DNA of 64,000 nt, from NCBI GenBank assembly GCA_022564295.1, contig JADFLR010000003.1, positions 62,001-126,000 on the forward strand, in the 5' to 3' direction. Under the pieces are notes generated by a model. That model ran no database searches, was not told where the DNA came from, and saw only the letters and a list, made by a program, of their open reading frames with translations. The DNA is from Bacteroidota bacterium. GTDB lineage: Bacteria > Bacteroidota > Ignavibacteria > Ignavibacteriales > Ignavibacteriaceae. Both the position numbers and the translations under genes were made by a program. Positions 35,035 to 54,339 of the stretch are shown in pieces. The first letter of the stretch is position 1; the number at the start of each line of letters is the position of its first letter.

Positions 35035-38000
35035 TTATTTTAATAAGATCATTTTTTTGGCTTCGAAGAATTTATCTCTAACATTAAGAACGTAGATATA
35101 CACTCCACTTGCAAAAATATTCCCGTTAAAATCTATTTCATGTCTTCCCACTTGCATTTCAGTATTTATTAATTGTGCAACACGCTGTCCTAAAATATCA
35201 TATACCTCCAGCTTCACTAATCCCTGTTCAGGCAAATCAAACCGTATTGTGGTTATTGGATTAAAAGGATTCGGATAGTTTTGGAACAGCAGGTAATCGT
35301 TTGGTATAAATTCACGAACAGTATCAACAGGATCAGGTGTTGTAAATACATAAGTATCGGAACCAGCAATAACAGGATTGTTGTAAAACACCCGAACAAC
35401 ATCCCCAATCTCATATTGATTTACCCACCAGACCAGGTTCCAGGTTGCATAATTCGCTAAATCAGGATCATCAAGAGGGTAAGCAGTTTCCTGATAATTG
35501 GTTAAAACAAAAGCCGTATACATTCTATCTTCCGTGTTCCAAACTCTAAATGGATCATCATCCATAGGATTTCCCAGGCGATCATATATCATAATATTCA
35601 CTTGTCTCTGTTCATCAATACTCCAAACCTCAAATGGAATTCTTACTGAAAATGGTTCTGATGAACCTGAATCAGGATTAAGTGGGTGATCAGCAATGTC
35701 GTAATCTCTTGTGCCGTAAAGCGTAGCGATGGAACCACCACCTTCTGCAGTTATTTCTATATTGCTACCATCGATGTTGATAATTTCTCTTATACCGGTA
35801 AATCTTAACTCATAATCTATTTGCAATAATTCCAATTGGTCTGTCCCCACTCCAAGTGAAGAATTGGCTGCAGTAGCAGGAACTATACCAAATACCGTGT
35901 AATCCTGAATACCGTACGGCGGGTTAAGATCACTAGATAATGGATTGCCATTCAAAGTAAGTGAGCTGATCGTAACCGGGTCATCATAACTAATATCTAC
36001 ATTGATTTGAAATCCGTCAACAATTGGAGCTTCGACAGGACCAAAATATTCCGGAAAATCATCACACGGAGGATACATATAATAATTATTAACAATTGAC
36101 TGGTTTTCCAGTGCCATCATTTCTATTGTTAAATCAAAAATATTCCAATACTGCGCCACTCTTGATTCAAACCCAACCTCAGTTAGAACAGTGGTTCCTG
36201 TTTCAGGTGGTCCACCACCAGAACTTCCATCATCGAATGCAATCCAGTAAACCGATAATGGAGGTGTAATTGTGGCGACTATAACAATCCATTCCTCACC
36301 GCCAGTGTGGAAAATACCATTCCCTGTTGCAGAGTTATCTGTAACTCCATAATGTATATTCTGTCCGATAATCTCCGGTTCAACCGTTCCTCCACTTGCT
36401 CTAAATGGAGGCGAATCGATGATTGTAACGTTAGCAGGAAATGTAAGTATAACCCCATCTACCCAACCATAATAATGGTGAACTACATCTAAGTAAAAAT
36501 GGAGTTCTGTAGTAGTAGAACTGGGACCGTAAATCGCAGTTATATCTATTGTAGTTCCGGTTAAAGTGTCGGGATCATTCGGATCAGATTTTCTTAATAC
36601 ATTACTGGCAGATACCCAATCACCATTTTCATTTCTGATCTCTGCTCGTTTAGTAAAGAATAATTCATAATCGTCACCTGTTATCTTCGTTGGATCTTCA
36701 ATCGTTACTAATATTTTTGCATTAGCTATACCTTCATTACGTTTAACCAAGACTGTATCTGCGTAACCTGCACCGGGAAGGCCATCATAATATATTACTT
36801 CAGTTAAATTTATGAGACTTTCTGTATTATTTGTGAATACTTCTGGATCAGGGTTATAAGTATATGCTGTTACTGCATAATAATATTTCTTTCCTACTAT
36901 CAATTGGGAGTCTTCTATGTAATCACGATCTAAAATAATCATCCGTTCTATTCCTGAATCTGAGCCGTATTGCTGGATTCCAACAACAGGTAATCCTGTT
37001 TCCGGATCCATTATACTTCCAGGTAGCTCATTAATGCCATCAATTATATCAAAAGTTGCAATTCTTAATGCGTTTTCCATAAAAGGCAGAGACGATGGCA
37101 ACTGATATAGATTATAACCCTGAAATTTGTAACCTGATTGATTAAAGCCTTCTATCAAATCTAGCTGTGAATTATCTTGACTCCAATCAAGTATTATTTG
37201 TGGGTCAGTTCTCTTAATTGATACAACTGGGTTAGGAGGTTTGGGATCTAAATTTTGTTGATAGCCGCCATCGTAAAAATTTTGTATTTGTATAGAGTAA
37301 TATTTTAATTTTTTAAACGAGTCTAAATTATCAGTACCAAGAGCGGCAATCTCCGCAATAACAATTTCCTGAGTGTCCCCAATAGCCATATTAAAAGGTC
37401 CTGATGATAGACCCATTTTTCTTTGACCCGGTCCTTGGAGTATTCCATCAATCCAGCCCTCTCCCGTTAAGGGATCACCGGAATTTGCATAAGTAGTTGA
37501 TTGGCCAGTGATGGGGTCAGTAAATAGCTGTCCTGTTATTCCAATTCTTCCCGTCATAAAGTTGTAAAGCTGGGTAGCTCTACCATCAAATTGACCTGAA
37601 CCTCTTTCAAACATGCTCCTCTCTGTAATATAAAAGAATGCAGTCATAGGAAGATTAAATCCGGTAGAATCAGATGGTCCCTGAAGAAGTTTAAATCCTA
37701 CTGCAGGCGTTGGGAGAGGATTGTAAACAGCATCAAAATCATATGCATTATATGCATAACCCAAATTCAATAAAGTATCACAGCCAACAAAATCATCCTC
37801 AAAGTCTCCCACATCCGGATCGGACCACATAGATATGTACATATCTTCAAAAGGAAATATACTTTTATTAATTAGTTTATAGCTCTTGAAGATTACATTA
37901 TCCAGAAATCCACCATCTTGATATTCCCATATAGTAGCTTGCATTTCTACTCCTAAAGGATCGCTTCCTATAAAATCTCGAGTGAATAATGGATCGAGAT

Positions 38001-38613
38001 CATTTGCCACGAACCAAATAGTTTGAACAGCACTCTGAATACCAGGGATATCAATGTTTGGGTAATATGTACCATTTCCATCCACATCATCATAAGGTGC
38101 ACCATCTTCTGCACGCCATTCATTCCAGTCCCGCTCATATTGTGCTCTCAATTCCGCTTCTGATTTCCCCTCAATAATTGCTTCCGAACTCAGATCGACT
38201 GGAGGTCCACCCGGATAGACATCCGGTCTTACTCTATAAATTCTAACGTGCTCAGCAGTTGGATCTTCTGCAACATTGGGTGCGATAAGTTTTCCAGGTT
38301 GAAGACCGGAACTATAAGCAGAACCACCACACCTAACTTGCGGATCACCAGGAATAAGTGCGCCCCATAAAAATCCGGATGCAAAAATTGCAGTTTTACC
38401 GCTGCCTTTTGGAAATTCAAAACCTGCATTCATTCCTTCAATATCAGTATCAGAAATACCATTATTCCCAAATACTGTAGAGATATTATTAAGGTTAAGA
38501 TACGCTTGCGATGGTGTCCACAAAATAATTGATCTCTCGCTCTCCTTTGATAAGTGTGCAAAGGTTAATATTGAAAAGCTGATTGTTATTATTAAATATA
38601 TTAATAATTTCAT
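35035..38613 (-). CDS. Large secreted protein with T9SS sorting tail, function unknown
   Basis: 1192 residues. Signal peptide at 1-19 (MKLLIYLIITISFSILTFA). The central part has fibronectin-like segments (PNPVVSIKRTDPQIILDWSQ; KKYYYAVTAYTYNPDPEVF) and long beta-rich stretches with no domain I recognise. The last 82 residues form the sorting tail: QNYPNPFNPITTIRFDLP, VYDILGQRVAQLI, SGVYIYVLNV, KKMILLK. The protein probably reaches the cell surface through the type IX system. Its ATG lies 12 bases after the end of the broken gene at 38626, so the two may share a transcript. Confidence 0.82.
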   Translation of the reverse strand: MKLLIYLIITISFSILTFAHLSKESERSIILWTPSQAYLNLNNISTVFGNNGISDTDIEGMNAGFEFPKGSGKTAIFASGFLWGALIPGDPQVRCGGSAYSSGLQPGKLIAPNVAEDPTAEHVRIYRVRPDVYPGGPPVDLSSEAIIEGKSEAELRAQYERDWNEWRAEDGAPYDDVDGNGTYYPNIDIPGIQSAVQTIWFVANDLDPLFTRDFIGSDPLGVEMQATIWEYQDGGFLDNVIFKSYKLINKSIFPFEDMYISMWSDPDVGDFEDDFVGCDTLLNLGYAYNAYDFDAVYNPLPTPAVGFKLLQGPSDSTGFNLPMTAFFYITERSMFERGSGQFDGRATQLYNFMTGRIGITGQLFTDPITGQSTTYANSGDPLTGEGWIDGILQGPGQRKMGLSSGPFNMAIGDTQEIVIAEIAALGTDNLDSFKKLKYYSIQIQNFYDGGYQQNLDPKPPNPVVSIKRTDPQIILDWSQDNSQLDLIEGFNQSGYKFQGYNLYQLPSSLPFMENALRIATFDIIDGINELPGSIMDPETGLPVVGIQQYGSDSGIERMIILDRDYIEDSQLIVGKKYYYAVTAYTYNPDPEVFTNNTESLINLTEVIYYDGLPGAGYADTVLVKRNEGIANAKILVTIEDPTKITGDDYELFFTKRAEIRNENGDWVSASNVLRKSDPNDPDTLTGTTIDITAIYGPSSTTTELHFYLDVVHHYYGWVDGVILTFPANVTIIDSPPFRASGGTVEPEIIGQNIHYGVTDNSATGNGIFHTGGEEWIVIVATITPPLSVYWIAFDDGSSGGGPPETGTTVLTEVGFESRVAQYWNIFDLTIEMMALENQSIVNNYYMYPPCDDFPEYFGPVEAPIVDGFQINVDISYDDPVTISSLTLNGNPLSSDLNPPYGIQDYTVFGIVPATAANSSLGVGTDQLELLQIDYELRFTGIREIINIDGSNIEITAEGGGSIATLYGTRDYDIADHPLNPDSGSSEPFSVRIPFEVWSIDEQRQVNIMIYDRLGNPMDDDPFRVWNTEDRMYTAFVLTNYQETAYPLDDPDLANYATWNLVWWVNQYEIGDVVRVFYNNPVIAGSDTYVFTTPDPVDTVREFIPNDYLLFQNYPNPFNPITTIRFDLPEQGLVKLEVYDILGQRVAQLINTEMQVGRHEIDFNGNIFASGVYIYVLNVRDKFFEAKKMILLK

Positions 38614-38625
38614 CTTACTTCGCCA

Positions 38626-40029
38626 TTACTTTAAATATAACATTTTCTTTGTTACCGCGTAACTTCCCGTTGTTAAGCGGTAGAAATATATACCGCTTGG
38701 TAATGCCGTTGCGTCAAACTTAATGGTGTGATATCCAGCAGGTTGATTATCCTTTGTAAATCTCATCACATTTTTGCCTAAAATATCAAAAATTAAAATC
38801 TTTACTGAACTTTCATTTGGTAATCCATAATAAATCGTAGTTGTAGGATTAAACGGATTGGGATAGTTCTGCTACAATGCAAAATCTGTTGGTGCAGGGT
38901 TTGTCACTTCCACCACTTCACTATATTCAAAACTTCCATCGTAGTCTATTTGTTTTAATCTGTAGCTGAGTGATGTAGCTTGTATATCACTAACGTTATC
39001 TATGTATTGATAGGACTGTATTTCTGTTGTTGTGCCGTGTCCTTCAACATAACCTATCGTTGTAAATTGTCCGTCTCCTATACTTCTTTGAATTTCAAAC
39101 ATATGGTTGTTTGTTTCAGTAGCTGTTGTCCAGTTAAGAGTTACTCTACCTTTGGATGTTGATGCAGTGAAGGATGTTAGTTCTACAGGAATTACTCCGC
39201 CAGTTGTAGTTCTTAGGATTGTGCCACCTCCACCAACAGCCGTACCGTTATCTGTATCGGTAAAGCTGACACCTCCCAACCCAGTTGTTGTTCCGCTTGT
39301 TTGTTCTGTCCAGTCTTTTCCGCCGTTTGTTGTTCTTAGGATTAGTCCTCTTCCTCCAAAAGAATAATTCCAGCCAACAACCGTACCGTTATTAACATCA
39401 GTAAAGCTGACACCAGACAGAGTTATTAAACCTGTAAATCCAATTATTGTCCAAGTTGTACCACCGTCAGTAGTTCTTAGGATTCGTCCTTCATATCCAA
39501 CAACAGTGCCGTTATCTGTATCGGTAAAGCTGACATCACTCAATCTAATATCTGTTCCGCTTGTTTGTGATGTCCAGGTTGTTCCGCCATCTGTAGTTCT
39601 TAGGATTATATCAACTTTAGACGACTCATCGGTACCCACAATAGTACCGCTATTTGTATCAGTAAAGCTGACACCTGTCAAATTTTCTGTTGTTCCGCTT
39701 GATTGTGATGTCCAGGTTGTACCGCCGTCAGTAGTTCTCAGGATTGAACCCCTTTCACCTACAGCCGTGCCGTTATCTGAATCTGTGAAGCTGACACCTG
39801 TCAAATTTTCTGTTGTTCCGCTTGTTTGTTGTGTCCAGTTTGAACCACCGTCAGTAGTTCTTAAGATTGTTCCATTCCAACCCACAGCCGTACCGTTATC
39901 TGAATCGGTGAAGCTGACACCTCTCAAATTTTCCGTTGTTCCACTTGTTTGTTGATACCACCCTTCTTATGCAAGCGTTGTGATTTGTAATAATACAAAT
40001 GCAGTAAAGAGTAAATATATTTTGTTCAT
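38626..40029 (-). pseudogene. Broken YCF48-repeat T9SS protein gene with two in-frame stops
   Basis: Read straight through, 468 codons in one frame make a complete protein: a signal peptide (MNKIYLLFTAFVLLQITTLA), six YCF48/BNR-type repeats of about 41 residues (core GVSFTDSDNGTAVGWNGTIL), a linker and a T9SS tail. Two stops interrupt it: TAA at 39969-39967 (codon 21, right after the signal peptide) and TAG at 38874-38872 (immediately before QNYPNPFNP). Both fall where the paralog at 46139-48190 has Gln, so each is explained by one C-to-T change (CAA to TAA, CAG to TAG). No frameshift is present. A GAGGAG ribosome-binding site precedes the ATG. The tail downstream of the TAG resembles that of the LamG gene at 42807 rather than the closest paralog. 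Confidence 0.85.
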
Positions 40030-40061
40030 AACTCCTCTTGTTAAACTTTCTCTCTTAGAAA

Positions 40062-42806: not shown

Positions 42807-45800
42807 CTATTTGAGTAAAATCATTTTCTTTGTCCGGTTGAAGCCACTTGCTTGTATTTGGTAAAAATAAATTCCGCTTGGCAATGCCGTTGCGTCAAAC
42901 TTAATGGTGTGATATCCAGCGGGTTGATTATCCTTTGTAAATCTCATCACATTGCTGCCTAAAATATCAAAAATTAAAATCCTTACTGAACTTTCATTTG
43001 GTAATCCATAATAAATCGTAGTGACAGGATTAAATGGGTTGGGATAGTTTTGCATTAATTCAAATTGTTCAGGAATAGTGGAATTAAAAATATCTGCTGA
43101 TGTGACTGGTTCAATTGTAAAAGGATCATCACTAGGATCGTTATTTTCCTCATCTGCCACATCTGTTATTTTTACTAACGCCTGTATTGTATGGATTGCA
43201 GGTACAGTCCATAGATAAATACCTGTGCTTGGAGTTGATTCAGTAACAAGATTCCAGGTTGCGCCGTTATTTGAACTAAACTCAATCTTAACATCTATGA
43301 TATCCTTGCTGGACCATGTAATGGATTGTTCTGTACCCATTCCCCAGACTTCACCACCGTTTGGAGAAAGTACAGATATTGTATTATTTGTTCCCCCTCC
43401 TCCCTCGTGATAAAGTTCTAATATTTCTGATTCACTTAGTGCTCGGTCGTATATTCTAACTTGATCCATTTTTCCGGTATATGGGCTACTACCGCTGCTT
43501 GGTTGAGAACCCATTCGAACTAATTGGTGAGGATTGTATATGCTTGGTGCCGTAACAGGATCAACAGCAATTAATACTCCATTCAAATAAAACCTCAACT
43601 CGTTAGCATCTCTTACTCCTGCAATGTGAAACCACTCATTTATCGGTATTTCCGACATTGGAATATGTACTGCTTCCCAAGCGTTGGATAACCAAGCCAC
43701 AATAAAAACCAGATCACCTACATTGATGCTTATAGCGAATCCTGCATCACCGGCACCAGGAATATTCCCTGGCGACCAGTTTGAAATTAAAAAATGTACA
43801 CCTGTGGTCGGTACGTTTTCAACATACATGAAAAGTGCAGCTGTCATTTCTGTATCAAATTCAAAATTAACTCCGTTGGGCACATCGATAAAATCATTAC
43901 CATCAAAATCATATGCGCTATTGGGGTTCTCAAACCTATCATTTGTTAGTGTAGCACCTGAGACAATTCCATCATATCCATTACCACTTTCATCGTTTGC
44001 ATTTCCGTTAAATGGATAATAGGCAACTAATTGATTTGTTTCTTCATTATACAGGTCTAAGACTTCCTCATCAGTAAGTGCGTAGTCATAAATTCTAAGG
44101 TTGTCAATTTCACCAGCCCACGATTGATGAGTTTGAAACGAACCACCAACTGCATCTTGATCCTGACCAATGATAAAACCTCCTAAATCAACATTCAGTG
44201 CATTACTTTGTACAGCTACCCCATTTCCAATTTCTAATCCATTAACGTAAAGCCTTGCAACAGATCCGTTCCTGGTGACTACAAAATGATGGAACTGATT
44301 ATCCTCAATAGTTGCATCGTTATTAAAAAAAGCTTCTGCATTAATCCCAATTGACCATTTGTCCATATTTGCACTGTATGCGATAAATAACTCGGTATCA
44401 GTAAAACTATTAGCACAACTTACCCAAGAATTCCAGGGATTTCCTGGACCACCAGAAGTATGGAGAGTATTTATTTTTAAAATTGATGAAATAGTAAAAT
44501 CATTTAACCCGTTAACAACTGAGTTCGGGAGTGATAGCGCATCTAAATCATTATTCCCCAAAAGTAATGTACCATCGGTAGTTGCGTTCCCTAATAAAGT
44601 CCCGTGGTATCCATTACCACTTTCATCGTTTGCATTTCCGTTAAATGGGTAATATGCAACTAAACCATTCCCACCTGTCCATCCTCCCTCGTGATAAAGC
44701 TCATCTATTTCAGACTGACTCAGTTCACGGTTATATATTCTTACATCATCAATTATTCCTTTAAAGCGACTACCATTAAAATCTATTCTTCTTCCTAGTT
44801 TCAATTCAAATGCGTTTCCTATAAGTGGCTCTGTTAAATCCATTACTTTAGCTTCAGAATTTATATAGACGGTTGTTGAGCCGGTTACATCAACATTTGC
44901 AACCAGATGATACCAGGTATCTAAATTTGGAATAATGTGAGTATTATATTCAACAAATCCAGATCCAAAAACCTCAGTAGATATAGCGAAAATAATTTCT
45001 CCGGTAGCGCCGGTGTAAAGTCTATACCCACCCCCACCATTTACCGGATATCCTTGTTTGTCAAAAATATGTGTACCAGAATTTGAGGCTATATCCCATT
45101 TAGCCCATACAGAAATAGCATAAGAGTGGTTTGTAAAATTAAAAGGTTCGCTACCCAAAATAATTTCGTCATCAATGCCATCGAAATAGTATGCACTATT
45201 AATATTTTCAAATCTGTCATTAGTTAACACAGCTCCAATAACTATTCCATCATTACCATTACCGCTTTCATCGTTTGCATTTCCGTTAAACGGGTAGTAT
45301 GCAACTAAATCATTATCTCTTGCTACATCAGAAATTCTCACTTCATCAATTAAAACATTTGCATTTACTGGCACTATGCTTCCTTTAAAAGAAGCAATCC
45401 TTATAGTATCAACTTGAAAATATGCATTGATAAATACTGTGTATTCTTGTTCGATTCCATTTATATACATTTTTGTGTTATTACCATCATAGGAAGCCAT
45501 TACGTGTACCCACTCATTTAATGGAATGAGATTATTAACCTCGCAAATGTTCCAATTGTTTCCATCACGTCTAAGTATTTGAAGATGTCCCTTACTTCCA
45601 AAAGATCCAAGAGACAAAACATACTCATCCAATTTTATGATATTCGTAGCACCTTCAAAATAAATGTCGGTTTTAATCCAGGATTCCATAGTAATCGGAT
45701 CACCGCCAACAATATTTAGAGATGAAGTATATGGCAAAGTAATCCCCAAATCAGTATTGTTGTTTGGATATGTCCTTCCTCCAAAAAACTTCCCCTCTGA

Positions 45801-46001
45801 TGGTTGATTTCCGTTTATAGTTCCGTGGTTTTGATACTGGCTTTCATCGTATGCTATATTACCAGATGTTTCGTTTAAGTGAAGAAGTAAAACTGTATTT
45901 TCATCTGGTTCATATTCTTCGGTTTGCACTTGGCCAAATGTTCCATAACACGCTAATGTAACAATAAATTGTACCTGAATGATTGTAAATAAATATTTCA
46001 T
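42807..46001 (-). CDS. Secreted four-LamG-domain protein with T9SS sorting tail
   Basis: 1064 residues. Signal peptide at 1-23. Four LamG/concanavalin-like domains lie at about 35-232, 236-445, 452-650 and 655-870, each with the WYHLVANVD / WVHVMASYDG / WFHIAGVRD type strand and ending VRIYNRELSQSEIDELYHEG or similar. The last three begin with the nearly identical sequence LVAYYPFNGNANDESGNG. An Ig-like domain (VLSPNGGEVWGMGTEQSITW, about 885-965) precedes the sorting tail (QNYPNPFNPVTTIYYGLP ... KKMILLK). LamG domains commonly bind sugars; the ligand here is unknown. Domain duplication is recent enough to be visible as about 50-bp DNA repeats. Confidence 0.87.
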   Translation of the reverse strand: MKYLFTIIQVQFIVTLACYGTFGQVQTEEYEPDENTVLLLHLNETSGNIAYDESQYQNHGTINGNQPSEGKFFGGRTYPNNNTDLGITLPYTSSLNIVGGDPITMESWIKTDIYFEGATNIIKLDEYVLSLGSFGSKGHLQILRRDGNNWNICEVNNLIPLNEWVHVMASYDGNNTKMYINGIEQEYTVFINAYFQVDTIRIASFKGSIVPVNANVLIDEVRISDVARDNDLVAYYPFNGNANDESGNGNDGIVIGAVLTNDRFENINSAYYFDGIDDEIILGSEPFNFTNHSYAISVWAKWDIASNSGTHIFDKQGYPVNGGGGYRLYTGATGEIIFAISTEVFGSGFVEYNTHIIPNLDTWYHLVANVDVTGSTTVYINSEAKVMDLTEPLIGNAFELKLGRRIDFNGSRFKGIIDDVRIYNRELSQSEIDELYHEGGWTGGNGLVAYYPFNGNANDESGNGYHGTLLGNATTDGTLLLGNNDLDALSLPNSVVNGLNDFTISSILKINTLHTSGGPGNPWNSWVSCANSFTDTELFIAYSANMDKWSIGINAEAFFNNDATIEDNQFHHFVVTRNGSVARLYVNGLEIGNGVAVQSNALNVDLGGFIIGQDQDAVGGSFQTHQSWAGEIDNLRIYDYALTDEEVLDLYNEETNQLVAYYPFNGNANDESGNGYDGIVSGATLTNDRFENPNSAYDFDGNDFIDVPNGVNFEFDTEMTAALFMYVENVPTTGVHFLISNWSPGNIPGAGDAGFAISINVGDLVFIVAWLSNAWEAVHIPMSEIPINEWFHIAGVRDANELRFYLNGVLIAVDPVTAPSIYNPHQLVRMGSQPSSGSSPYTGKMDQVRIYDRALSESEILELYHEGGGGTNNTISVLSPNGGEVWGMGTEQSITWSSKDIIDVKIEFSSNNGATWNLVTESTPSTGIYLWTVPAIHTIQALVKITDVADEENNDPSDDPFTIEPVTSADIFNSTIPEQFELMQNYPNPFNPVTTIYYGLPNESSVRILIFDILGSNVMRFTKDNQPAGYHTIKFDATALPSGIYFYQIQASGFNRTKKMILLK
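43978..45305. repeat. Three about 50-bp direct repeats at LamG domain boundaries
   Basis: Copies at about 43978-44030, 44612-44660 and 45257-45305 share the block CATTACCACTTTCATCGTTT (one copy with GC in place of AC) followed by GCATTTCCGTTAAA. They encode the YYPFNGNANDESGNG start of successive LamG domains. Their near identity contrasts with the more diverged domain interiors, pointing to gene conversion or recent duplication. Confidence 0.75.
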
Positions 46002-46138: not shown

Positions 46139-48190
46139 TTATTTTAACAAAATCATCTTTTTTGTCTGGTTGTAGCTACCTGCTTGTAATCTGTAAAAGT
46201 AAATTCCACTCGGCAATGTTGTTGCTCCGCCCGTGGCGGAAAACTCAACTTTAAATCTACCAGCTTCTTTTTCTTCGTTTACTAATTGATTTACTTTCTC
46301 TCCCAATGTGTTATATACAACCAACTCAACTTGTGATTTTACCGGCAAGCTGTAGCTTATAGTTGTCACAGGGTTAAAGGGATTTGGGTAGTTTTGCTGC
46401 AATGCAAAATCTGTTGGTGCAGGGTTTGTTACTTCTACTACATCACTATATTCATAACTTCCATCATAGTCTATTTGTTTTAATCTGTAACTGAGTGAGG
46501 TTGCTTGGATATCACTTATATCATCAATGAATTGATAGTTCTGTATTTCCGTTGTTGTGCCGTGTCCTTCAACATAACCTATCGTTGTAAATTGTCCGTG
46601 TTCTATTCTTCTTTCAATTTCGAACATCTGGTTGTTTGTTTCAGTAGCTGTTGCCCAGTTAAGAGTTACTGTACCTTTAGATGTTGATGCAGTGAATGAA
46701 GTTAATTCTACCGGAATTACCCCACCAGTTGTTGTTCTCAGGATTGTTCCCCAGTCGCCCACAACGGTACCGTTATATGAATCGGTAAAGCTGACACTAA
46801 GCAAAATTTCAGTAGTTCCGCTTTCTTGTAATATCCAGTTTGCACCACCGTCAGTAGTTCTTAGGATTGTTCCATTCCTTCCCACAACCGTACCGTTATT
46901 TGAATCAGTAAAGCTGACACCTGCCAAAAATTCTGTTGTTCCGCTTGTTTGTGATATCCAGTTTGTACCAGCATTGGTGGTTCTTAATATTGTTCCATTT
47001 CCACCAACAGCCGTACCATTATCTGTATCGGTAAAGCTGACACACCACAATACATCTGTTGTGCCGCTTGTTTGAGGATACCAGTTTGTACCGCCGTTAG
47101 TAGTTCTCAAGATTGTACCTTGACCACCCACAGCTGTGCCGTTATCTGAATCGGTAAAGCTAACGCCAAAGAAGGAATTATGAATAAAAGGAAAAGAGGC
47201 CCCTGTTCCGCTTGTTTGTGATGTCCAGGTTGTACCGCCGTTAATAGTCTTTAAGATTGTTCCATTAAAGCCCACAACCGTACCATTATCTGTATCGGTA
47301 AAGCTGACACCAGACAAAACTTCTATTGTTCCACTTCTTTGCGGTGTCCAGGTTGTTCCGCCATTTGTTGTTCTGAGGATTAATCCTACATAAGGATCAT
47401 GCGGGACACCCCCCACAACCGTACCGTTTTTTGCATCGGTAAAGCTGACTGAATAAAATTCATAATTGTATCCACTAAATTGTAGTGTCCAGGTTGTACC
47501 GCCGTTAGTTGTTCTAAGAATTATTCCATTATAACTATAGCTGTAGCCCACAGCCGTTCCGTTATCTGCATCGGTAAAGCTAATACCATACAAATCTTCT
47601 GTTGTTCCGCTTTCTTGTGTTACCCAGGTATTACCCCCGTTAGTAGTTCTTAGGATGGTTCCACCCCATCCCACAGCCGTTCCGTTATCCGAATCGGTAA
47701 AGCTGACACCATACAACCGTGTTGTTGTTCCGCTTGTTTGTGATGACCAGAATGTACCACCGTCAGTAGTTCTTAGGATTGTTCCACCCCAACCTACAGC
47801 GGTGCCGTTATCTGTATCGGTAAAGCTGACACCAGTCAACCGTTCTGTTGTTCCGCTTTCTTGTGTTATCCAGGTATTACCGCCGTTAGTAGTCCTAACG
47901 ATTGTTCCACCCCAACCTACAGCGGTGCCGTTATCTGTATCCGTAAAACTGACACCAGTCAACCGTTCTGTTGTTCCGCTTGATTGTATTTTCCAGGTTG
48001 TTCCTCCGTCAGTAGTTCTCAAGATTGTTTTCGCATCACCAACAGCCCAGCCTGTTAATTCGCTTACAAAATCAACGGATCGTAATGTATTATTCTGGGG
48101 TAATGGATTTTGCCAAAACCAACCTTGCTGTGTAAGGGTAATAGGTTGGAATAAAAGAAATGCAATAAAAAGTAAAAATAAGTTTTTCAT
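46139..48190 (-). CDS. Secreted protein of eleven YCF48-type repeats with T9SS sorting tail
   Basis: 683 residues. Signal peptide at 1-21 (KNLFLLFIAFLLFQPITLTQ). Eleven tandem repeats of about 41 residues follow (core GVSFTDTDNGTAVGWGGTIL, RTTNGGNTWVTQESGTTE), then the linker VELTSFTASTSKGTVTLNWA and the sorting tail from about residue 596. The repeats are so alike at DNA level that copy-number change by recombination is likely. It is the closest intact relative of the broken gene at 38626. An AGGAGG site precedes the ATG. Near the C-terminus a 15-bp palindrome (46226-46240) adds about four residues to the tail. Confidence 0.85.
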   Translation of the reverse strand: MKNLFLLFIAFLLFQPITLTQQGWFWQNPLPQNNTLRSVDFVSELTGWAVGDAKTILRTTDGGTTWKIQSSGTTERLTGVSFTDTDNGTAVGWGGTIVRTTNGGNTWITQESGTTERLTGVSFTDTDNGTAVGWGGTILRTTDGGTFWSSQTSGTTTRLYGVSFTDSDNGTAVGWGGTILRTTNGGNTWVTQESGTTEDLYGISFTDADNGTAVGYSYSYNGIILRTTNGGTTWTLQFSGYNYEFYSVSFTDAKNGTVVGGVPHDPYVGLILRTTNGGTTWTPQRSGTIEVLSGVSFTDTDNGTVVGFNGTILKTINGGTTWTSQTSGTGASFPFIHNSFFGVSFTDSDNGTAVGGQGTILRTTNGGTNWYPQTSGTTDVLWCVSFTDTDNGTAVGGNGTILRTTNAGTNWISQTSGTTEFLAGVSFTDSNNGTVVGRNGTILRTTDGGANWILQESGTTEILLSVSFTDSYNGTVVGDWGTILRTTTGGVIPVELTSFTASTSKGTVTLNWATATETNNQMFEIERRIEHGQFTTIGYVEGHGTTTEIQNYQFIDDISDIQATSLSYRLKQIDYDGSYEYSDVVEVTNPAPTDFALQQNYPNPFNPVTTISYSLPVKSQVELVVYNTLGEKVNQLVNEEKEAGRFKVEFSATGGATTLPSGIYFYRLQAGSYNQTKKMILLK
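46226..46240. repeat. 15-bp palindrome inside a T9SS tail (copy 1)
   Basis: TCCGCC-CGT-GGCGGA, a perfect 6-bp stem with a 3-base loop, encoding part of SATGGATTLPSG where other tails here read DATALPSG or AKGLPSG. The same element is at 48310-48324 in the next gene. Confidence 0.65.
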
Positions 48191-52425: not shown

Positions 52426-54339
52426 TTATTTCACTAATATCATTTTCTCAGTCTCGATAAAATTTCCTGCTTTCAGTTGATAGAAATAAACTCCGCTGCT
52501 CAGAATACTATTCTGAGCTATGTTGAACTCAACCACATAACTTCCAGCAGGTAATTCTTTGTTAACGAGGGTTGCAATTTCGTTTCCGAGAACATCGTAA
52601 ACTTTTAAACTCACAAATTGCTTACTGCTTATTGCATACTGGATTCTGGTGCTTGGGTTGAATGGATTCGGGTAGTTTTGTGAGAGTGAAAACTCTGTAG
52701 GCAAATTTTGTGTTTCATCTTCAACCGAAACAACTGTAGTATCGCCGTAAACTACGCCGTTTATAATGCAGCCCTTAAGAACGATCCAGGTATCTCCAAA
52801 ATCAAAATAACTGTAAATGCTGTCGAGACCTATATCCTGAGTTAAAGAATAAACAGGGGGATGCAAAATATATTGCTCAAAGACTTTTTTGGGTTTGTTT
52901 AATCCCCATTTCTCAAATGTTATTTCATCAAGCACGGTCGTGTGGCTGCCAGGATAATATCCCATTCTATAGCTATTAACCGTATCTCCAACTTCTGCCA
53001 AAAGATCATCCAGTAAATATTCATTTTCAGTTAAACCCGGGTTTTCTAAATATCTATAAACTTTTCCCTCCGATGAATCGATTCTTTCAAGAACATCTTC
53101 TTCCCAAACTGTCTCGTCTTTTAAATAATAATAGTGTTTACCATTTGCTGCTATTGTATCTCTCAAAACTTCTTTAACTAAAATGTGATGTGAATAATGT
53201 GGGTATGGATCATAGGTGACGGTAGTCTCATCATAAATCCACTTATTGCCAATTGCCAAAGGATAGAAATTCAAAATTTCATCCGGGATTGGCAAGTTTT
53301 TTATTATCAGCATTGTATCAGGAGTGATTTCATAAATTTTGTACTTCGTTGCAGCGTAAAGTTTATCAGAGTTTGGTTTTTTGTATATGCCGACAATGTT
53401 TCTATCCAAACTTTTATAGAGGGTGAAATTATTTCCGAAATCTGTGGAGAGGAAGATGTTTTTTCCATCTGCAAGGTAAACCTCTCCGGTTACGGATTTA
53501 TTATTAGAGATAAATATTTGAGTTGGAGATGTGTATTTAGTCGCCCATGAAAAAGCTTCTCCACTATTTGAGGAGACTTTCAATTCATATTCTCTCGTAA
53601 AGAAGCTTCTTGTTACCCTGTATATATGATTTGCATTCTGGTCATAATGATATTGCTGCTCCTGGTAAGTCATTGAGGTATCAACTAGATAATAACTATT
53701 GCCGCCATTAGTTGTTTTGTACAATTTTTTAGTAATCTCATTACGCGCAAGGAAGATCTGATCGTTCGATGGATTTAGTGAAAGCATCTCAAATATATCA
53801 GGTAGTCTTTCCCAGTTCCAACCTCCATCTGTGCTTCTTATTGTACCTATGAAACCTGAACTATCAAAAACATTTACGCGTGCATAAAGTAGACTATCGT
53901 TCTGACTCGATATTTCAATTAGATGAACGACTCCACCTTTATCATAAGTGTTTTCACTATCAAATCTTTGTATGAAGGTCTGTTCATTTAAAATTGTAAT
54001 CTGCGTTGCACCGCCATAGATGTAGTATGATGGGTTATCTTGTCAAAAGTTTAAATCTGCTATAACAAAGTCTTCCGGATAATAATAAATTGAATCAAAT
54101 CGCATATAACTTTCAAGAAACAAGGTATCTTGTTGGTTAAGAAGATCAAAATGATAAATATTATTACTTGAATTGGTCCAATAGTTAACGGAATCGTATG
54201 AAGTAGTGTAAATCCTGTAAAACAAATGAGTGTTGCCGGATTGATCCTCCATTCCCTTTAACTCAGAGAATTGAGGTGAGACGTTTTGAGAATGTGTTGC
54301 TGCTGCCGATAACAAAATAATAATTATTATTCTTTTCAT
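52426..54339 (-). pseudogene. T9SS-tailed sensor-like protein gene with one in-frame TGA
   Basis: One frame of 638 codons runs from the ATG at 54339 (MKRIIIIILLSAAATHSQNV) to the stop at 52426, interrupted only by TGA at 54045-54043 (codon 99). Both sides align along their whole length with the intact neighbour at 54352: HLFYR / NIYHFDLLNQQDTLF before, and IYGG, IRSTDGGWNW, YKTTNGGNSY, YPLAIGNKWIYDE and the T9SS tail after. At the stop the neighbour reads FFNDDPTKFIYGG and this copy F*QDNPSYYIYGG, so a single change such as TGG to TGA would explain it. No frameshift. The signal peptide piece alone could still be made. Confidence 0.85.

What the first reader, a model, noticed from the sequence alone, without database searches (positions are those of the whole stretch)
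38626..40029. T9SS gene with two in-frame stops, both exactly at glutamine codons
The frame is complete for 468 codons, with a good ribosome-binding site, signal peptide, repeats and tail, yet carries TAA at codon 21 and TAG just before QNYPNPFNP. The intact paralog (46139-48190) has Gln at both places (ITLTQQGW versus ITTLA*EGW; FALQQNYPN versus FAL*QNYPN). Two CAR-to-TAR changes and no frameshift suggest very recent inactivation, or, less likely, regulated readthrough.
Basis: partly seen in the sequence, partly recalled or inferred. Interest (0 to 1): 0.72.

Follow-up and report, generated by a model that had tools for sequence, protein, structure and literature searches.

The report
Twice-stopped secreted-protein pseudogene in big family
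A gene for a secreted bacterial surface protein really does carry two premature stop signals in an otherwise intact reading frame, but it is most likely an ordinary, recently inactivated copy in a family of about 150 genes, at least six other members of which also carry stray stops.

Summary
The minus-strand gene 38626-40029 reads through 468 codons with no frameshift, with TAA at codon 21 (39967-39969) and TAG at codon 386 (38872-38874). The stops cut off the signal peptide and the type IX secretion (T9SS) tail, so no secreted product is expected. The best reading is a recently inactivated T9SS cargo gene. dN/dS against its paralog (0.13) still looks like that of intact pairs, and the RBS and frame are intact. 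Against a Gln code or programmed readthrough: all 46 tRNAs have normal anticodons, RF1 is intact, TAG and TAA end other genes, and no listed congener homolog has a stop in the tail region. About six other T9SS cargo genes in this genome carry lone in-frame stops, of all three kinds; one replaces an Arg codon. One of these genes (TGA, 52426-54339) lies in the same window and was missed. Gln at codon 21 is well supported (three paralogs; the signal-peptidase "Q-rule"). At codon 386 it rests on one paralog: 1 of about 150 tails has Gln there. The gene is also a mosaic, with a sharp breakpoint at NYPNPFNP next to the TAG. Raw reads were not available.

The parts
38626..40029 (-). T9SS cargo gene, 468 codons, with two in-frame stops (pseudogene)
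40032..40038 (-). ribosome-binding site AGAGGAG
39970..40029 (-). signal peptide MNKIYLLFTAFVLLQITTLA, codons 1-20
   Evidence: same start as intact paralog C27b MNKIYLLFIAFILFQLTTLA-QQGW
39967..39969 (-). in-frame TAA, codon 21, at the +1 (Q-rule) position after the signal peptide
39193..39966 (-). YCF48/BNR-like (PSII_BNR) repeats
38845..39192 (-). linker domain IPVEL...QNYPNPFNP shared with paralogs 46139, 48223, 40062 and C27a
38872..38874 (-). in-frame TAG, codon 386, just before QNYPNPFNP
38845..38868 (-). NYPNPFNP codons: mosaic breakpoint (upstream 91% to gene 46139, 33% to gene 42807; downstream 48% and 95%)
38629..38871 (-). T9SS C-terminal sorting domain (Por_Secre_tail), cut off by the TAG
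46139..48190 (-). intact paralog, 683 aa
52426..54339 (-). second T9SS cargo gene of this window with an otherwise open frame and a lone in-frame TGA at 54043-54045

Best explanation
This is a recently inactivated (pseudo)gene of a large, recombining family of T9SS-secreted surface proteins. Two nonsense point mutations, probably C>T in Gln codons, stop translation right after the signal peptide and again before the C-terminal sorting domain. No exported product is expected: the first stop leaves a 20-residue signal peptide, and any product restarted inside lacks both the signal peptide and the T9SS tail. The gene lies in a tandem array of cargo genes and is a mosaic whose tail came from, or went to, the neighbour 42807-46001. 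Loss is tolerated because the genome holds about 150 such genes, several of which carry lone nonsense codons too. Shown: the stops, the intact frame, the mosaic, the paralogs, the other interrupted genes and the absence of a suppressor tRNA. Inferred: loss of function, recency, and Gln as the lost residue at codon 386.
For: Stops and frame. Domains. dN/dS of the linker block: 0.134 to the intact paralog, against 0.13-0.24 among intact pairs, so selection acted until recently. Codon context at both stops fits single-base decay of paralog sequence. In the genome survey of 157 tail motifs about 7 cargo genes carry in-frame stops: the target TAA+TAG, window 54045 TGA, C19 TAG, C13 TGA, C8 TGA, C10 TAA, C26 TAA. 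In the C19 gene the intact neighbour has CGG (Arg), so the stops are not Gln-specific. Broken tail remnants also exist. Release factor 1 is intact. All 46 tRNAs have standard anticodons. TAA and TAG end 30 and 8 of 42 window genes. No stop in the tail region of the congener homologs listed.
Against: There is no frameshift or deletion and no relaxation of dN/dS. Both are expected if recent, but neither shows loss of function. No orthologue in another species was found, so the age of the stops cannot be dated. Reads are not available.
Confidence: 0.84

Rival explanations
1. Assembly or consensus error: the cell has sense codons at one or both places.
For: Reads are not available. Lone in-frame stops also occur in other genes of this assembly, e.g. 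a bestrophin gene, as a raised substitution-error rate would give.
Against: Two independent nonsense errors in 1.4 kb are unlikely. In-frame stops look enriched in cargo genes (5-7 of 157) over 400 kb of random genome (1-2 in roughly 380 genes; rough Fisher p 0.003-0.02), whereas errors should hit all genes alike. No other window gene apart from the cargo gene 52426-54339 is interrupted.
Confidence: 0.08
2. Programmed or tolerated readthrough: ribosomes insert Gln (or another residue) at UAA and UAG at low frequency, giving small amounts of secreted protein, possibly as bet-hedging.
For: dN/dS stays low. Both cargo-gene TAGs checked (this one and C19) are followed by CAR. A survey of bacterial genomes reports widespread in-frame stops with dN/dS below 1 (PMC7918605). 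The two stops fall at domain boundaries.
Against: No suppressor tRNA, RF1 intact. Two stops in series would multiply the loss, and UAA is generally read through poorly (general knowledge). The CAR after TAG here belongs to the conserved QNYPNPFNP motif. Interrupted cargo genes use all three stops. No stop in the congener homologs listed. The same paper finds that such stops mostly persist only briefly.
Confidence: 0.04
3. Silent donor cassette: the gene is no longer translated but is kept as a reservoir for gene conversion of the expressed paralogs.
For: Sharp mosaic breakpoints at NYPNPFNP between this gene and its neighbours, and 47 gene pairs in the genome that share a tail at 80% identity or more with unrelated upstream sequence.
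Against: The intact RBS and signal peptide and the lack of a defined expression locus are unlike known silent-cassette systems. The direction and timing of exchange are not known.
Confidence: 0.04

Closest known systems
Bacterial pseudogenes by nonsense mutation in expanded surface-protein families
   Same: Intact frame with point nonsense mutations, many paralogs, no recoding apparatus
   Different: Two stops in one gene with no frameshift; the stops happen to bracket the passenger domain
In-frame stop codons with retained purifying selection (Belinky et al. 2021, PMC7918605)
   Same: Lone in-frame stops, including CAG/TAG, with dN/dS below 1, mostly young
   Different: No orthologous stop in a second genome was found here
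T9SS cargo proteins with Por_Secre_tail (PF18962) and PSII_BNR/YCF48 repeats (PF14870)
   Same: Signal peptide, repeat passenger, QNYPNPFNP linker, C-terminal sorting domain
   Different: The frame is interrupted, so it cannot give a secreted product without readthrough
Bacteroidetes Q-rule (PMC5837995)
   Same: Paralogs have Gln at +1 after the signal peptide, exactly where the TAA lies; Ignavibacterium album is reported there with a Q-value of 77%
   Different: Gln replaced by TAA; cleavage and cyclisation not tested

Membership tests
T9SS cargo protein (Por_Secre_tail) | N-terminal Sec signal peptide in frame with the mature protein | tested here: not met
   Signal peptide present, but TAA follows at codon 21
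T9SS cargo protein (Por_Secre_tail) | C-terminal sorting domain over Pfam cut-off | tested here: met
   52.2 bits against cut-off 27, but separated by TAG
Pseudogene by nonsense mutation | Disabling mutations relative to intact homologs | tested here: met
   TAA and TAG against sense codons in the paralogs
Pseudogene by nonsense mutation | No functional product | not testable with these tools
   Needs proteomics or a reporter
Stop-codon reassignment or suppression | tRNA with anticodon reading UAA/UAG | tested here: not met
   46 tRNAs found, none with cta/tta/tca anticodon
Stop-codon reassignment or suppression | Loss of RF1 or absence of UAA/UAG as terminators | tested here: not met
   prfA intact at 529 bits; TAA 30, TAG 8, TGA 4 as terminators in the window
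Programmed readthrough | Stop conserved at the same place in orthologs | tested here: inconclusive
   No orthologue in 59 relatives; no stop in the tail region of the listed congener homologs
Silent gene-conversion cassette | Sequence exchange with expressed paralogs | tested here: inconclusive
   Mosaic at NYPNPFNP; direction unknown

The most novel reading that the evidence does not exclude
Programmed or tolerated readthrough of in-frame stops at the signal-peptide and sorting-domain boundaries acts as a dosage or bet-hedging switch for T9SS surface proteins in this lineage.
Probability: 0.03. Interest if true: 0.8.

Novelty: new member of a known kind. Interest (0 to 1): 0.2.

Why it matters
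It shows birth and death in a very large T9SS cargo family: tails are exchanged at NYPNPFNP, and a few per cent of members carry lone nonsense codons. Automatic annotation splits or drops such genes. If readthrough were shown it would matter much more, but the present evidence is against it.

Tried and rejected
Gln reassignment of UAR: rejected (tRNAs, RF1, terminator use, and an Arg codon at another stop). A probe meant for the pyrrolysyl-tRNA synthetase was made with a wrong accession (TIGR02912 is a sulfite reductase model) and says nothing. Orthologues in 59 relatives: only distant homologs, about 57-65% identity at best over parts, none shown to be syntenic. Genome-contig scan: no close relative. 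Plasmid collection: no match. Promoters and terminators in the region: at chance level. Functional internal start: the 351-aa inner ORF starts at a TTG and lacks the signal peptide and tail, so no secreted product. 'Both stops at Gln' as a signal: 2.5-10% by chance at plausible transition bias, not compelling.

Full report
Observation. The reading frame on the minus strand of 38626-40029 was translated directly: 468 codons with TAA at codon 21, TAG at codon 386 and the terminal TAA. No frameshift is needed to match paralogs on either side of the stops. The gene has a ribosome-binding site AGAGGAG at 40032-40038, a signal peptide, YCF48/BNR repeats (PF14870), a linker ending in QNYPNPFNP and a T9SS sorting domain (PF18962, 52 bits).

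Surroundings. It lies in a tandem array of T9SS cargo genes on the same strand (35035 to 56223). The whole genome (4.07 Mb, 59 contigs) has about 150-170 such tails. The collection does not name the organism. T9SS tails of the QNYPNPFNP type, together with Ignavibacteria MAGs among the database hits, point to Ignavibacteria; this is inference.

What was lost at the stops. Codon 21 follows the signal peptide. Three paralogs with the same kind of signal peptide have CAG there (LTQQGW, LAQQGW, FAQQGW). This is the Gln of the 'Q-rule' for signal peptidase I substrates, for which Ignavibacterium album is reported with a Q-value of 77% (PMC5837995). From CAG, two changes are needed for TAA, or one from CAA. 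At codon 386 only the paralog 46139-48190 has Gln; of about 147 tails in the genome the residue before QNYPNPFNP is Ser in 45, Glu in 32, Phe in 17, Tyr in 13 and Gln in just one. Because the preceding six codons are identical to that paralog (CCA ACA GAT TTT GCA TTG), CAG>TAG is still the simplest origin.

Selection. In the 116-codon linker block, dN/dS between target and paralog 46139 is 0.134 (dS 0.40), within the range of intact pairs (0.13-0.24), and the target's private changes are not biased to nonsynonymous ones. So the stops are young relative to the duplication. This does not show current function.

Mosaic. In the 90 bases before NYPNPFNP the target is 91% identical to gene 46139 and 33% to gene 42807; in the 150 bases after it, 48% and 95%. 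Genome-wide, 47 pairs of cargo genes share the 120 bases after the motif at 80% identity or more with unrelated sequence before it, and 15 pairs show the reverse. The TAG sits at the edge of such a breakpoint, but a single C>T explains it better than a recombination scar.

Recoding tests. All 46 tRNAs found have ordinary anticodons. prfA is intact. In 42 window genes TAA ends 30, TAG 8 and TGA 4. Among the 150 best-listed tail matches in six congeneric genomes, only the target carries a stop.

Other interrupted genes. A survey of 157 tail motifs in stretches of this genome, plus the window, found lone in-frame stops in about six further cargo genes: window 54045 TGA, C19 TAG, C13 TGA, C8 TGA (arylsulfotransferase-like), C10 TAA, C26 TAA (C26). 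In the C19 gene the intact neighbour has CGG (Arg) at the TAG. All three stops occur. In 400 kb of random stretches only one clear case (bestrophin, TAA) and one possible one were seen. The enrichment in cargo genes (rough Fisher p 0.003-0.02) is indicative only, because the two scans used different thresholds and the control gene number is an estimate.

Verdict. It is an ordinary nonsense pseudogene in an expanded, recombining family, with the small curiosity of two stops that bracket the passenger domain. Among the 18 Gln codons (positions) such a placement has a chance of roughly 1-3% by my own count and was noticed after the fact, so it carries little weight. Readthrough is not excluded but nothing supports it specifically. 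A survey of bacteria finds in-frame stops with retained dN/dS to be widespread and mostly short-lived (PMC7918605), which fits.

Noticed in passing
   Followed up: yes
genome-wide; in the window 38845-38868 and 43026-43049: T9SS tails appear to be exchanged between unrelated cargo genes with sharp breakpoints at the NYPNPFNP codons (47 gene pairs).
   Followed up: partly
L218:5683 (C19), L232:11984 (C13), L236:2697 (C8), L240:10652 (C10), L242:4741 (C26): Further cargo genes with lone in-frame TAG, TGA, TGA, TAA and TAA.
   Followed up: partly
L193:18140 (C25:38139): A bestrophin gene (not T9SS) split by an in-frame TAA; both halves match PF25539.
   Followed up: partly
38613-38628: The start codon of the next gene (35035-38613) lies 12 bases after the target's terminal stop, so the premature stops could lower its expression by polarity.
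   Followed up: no
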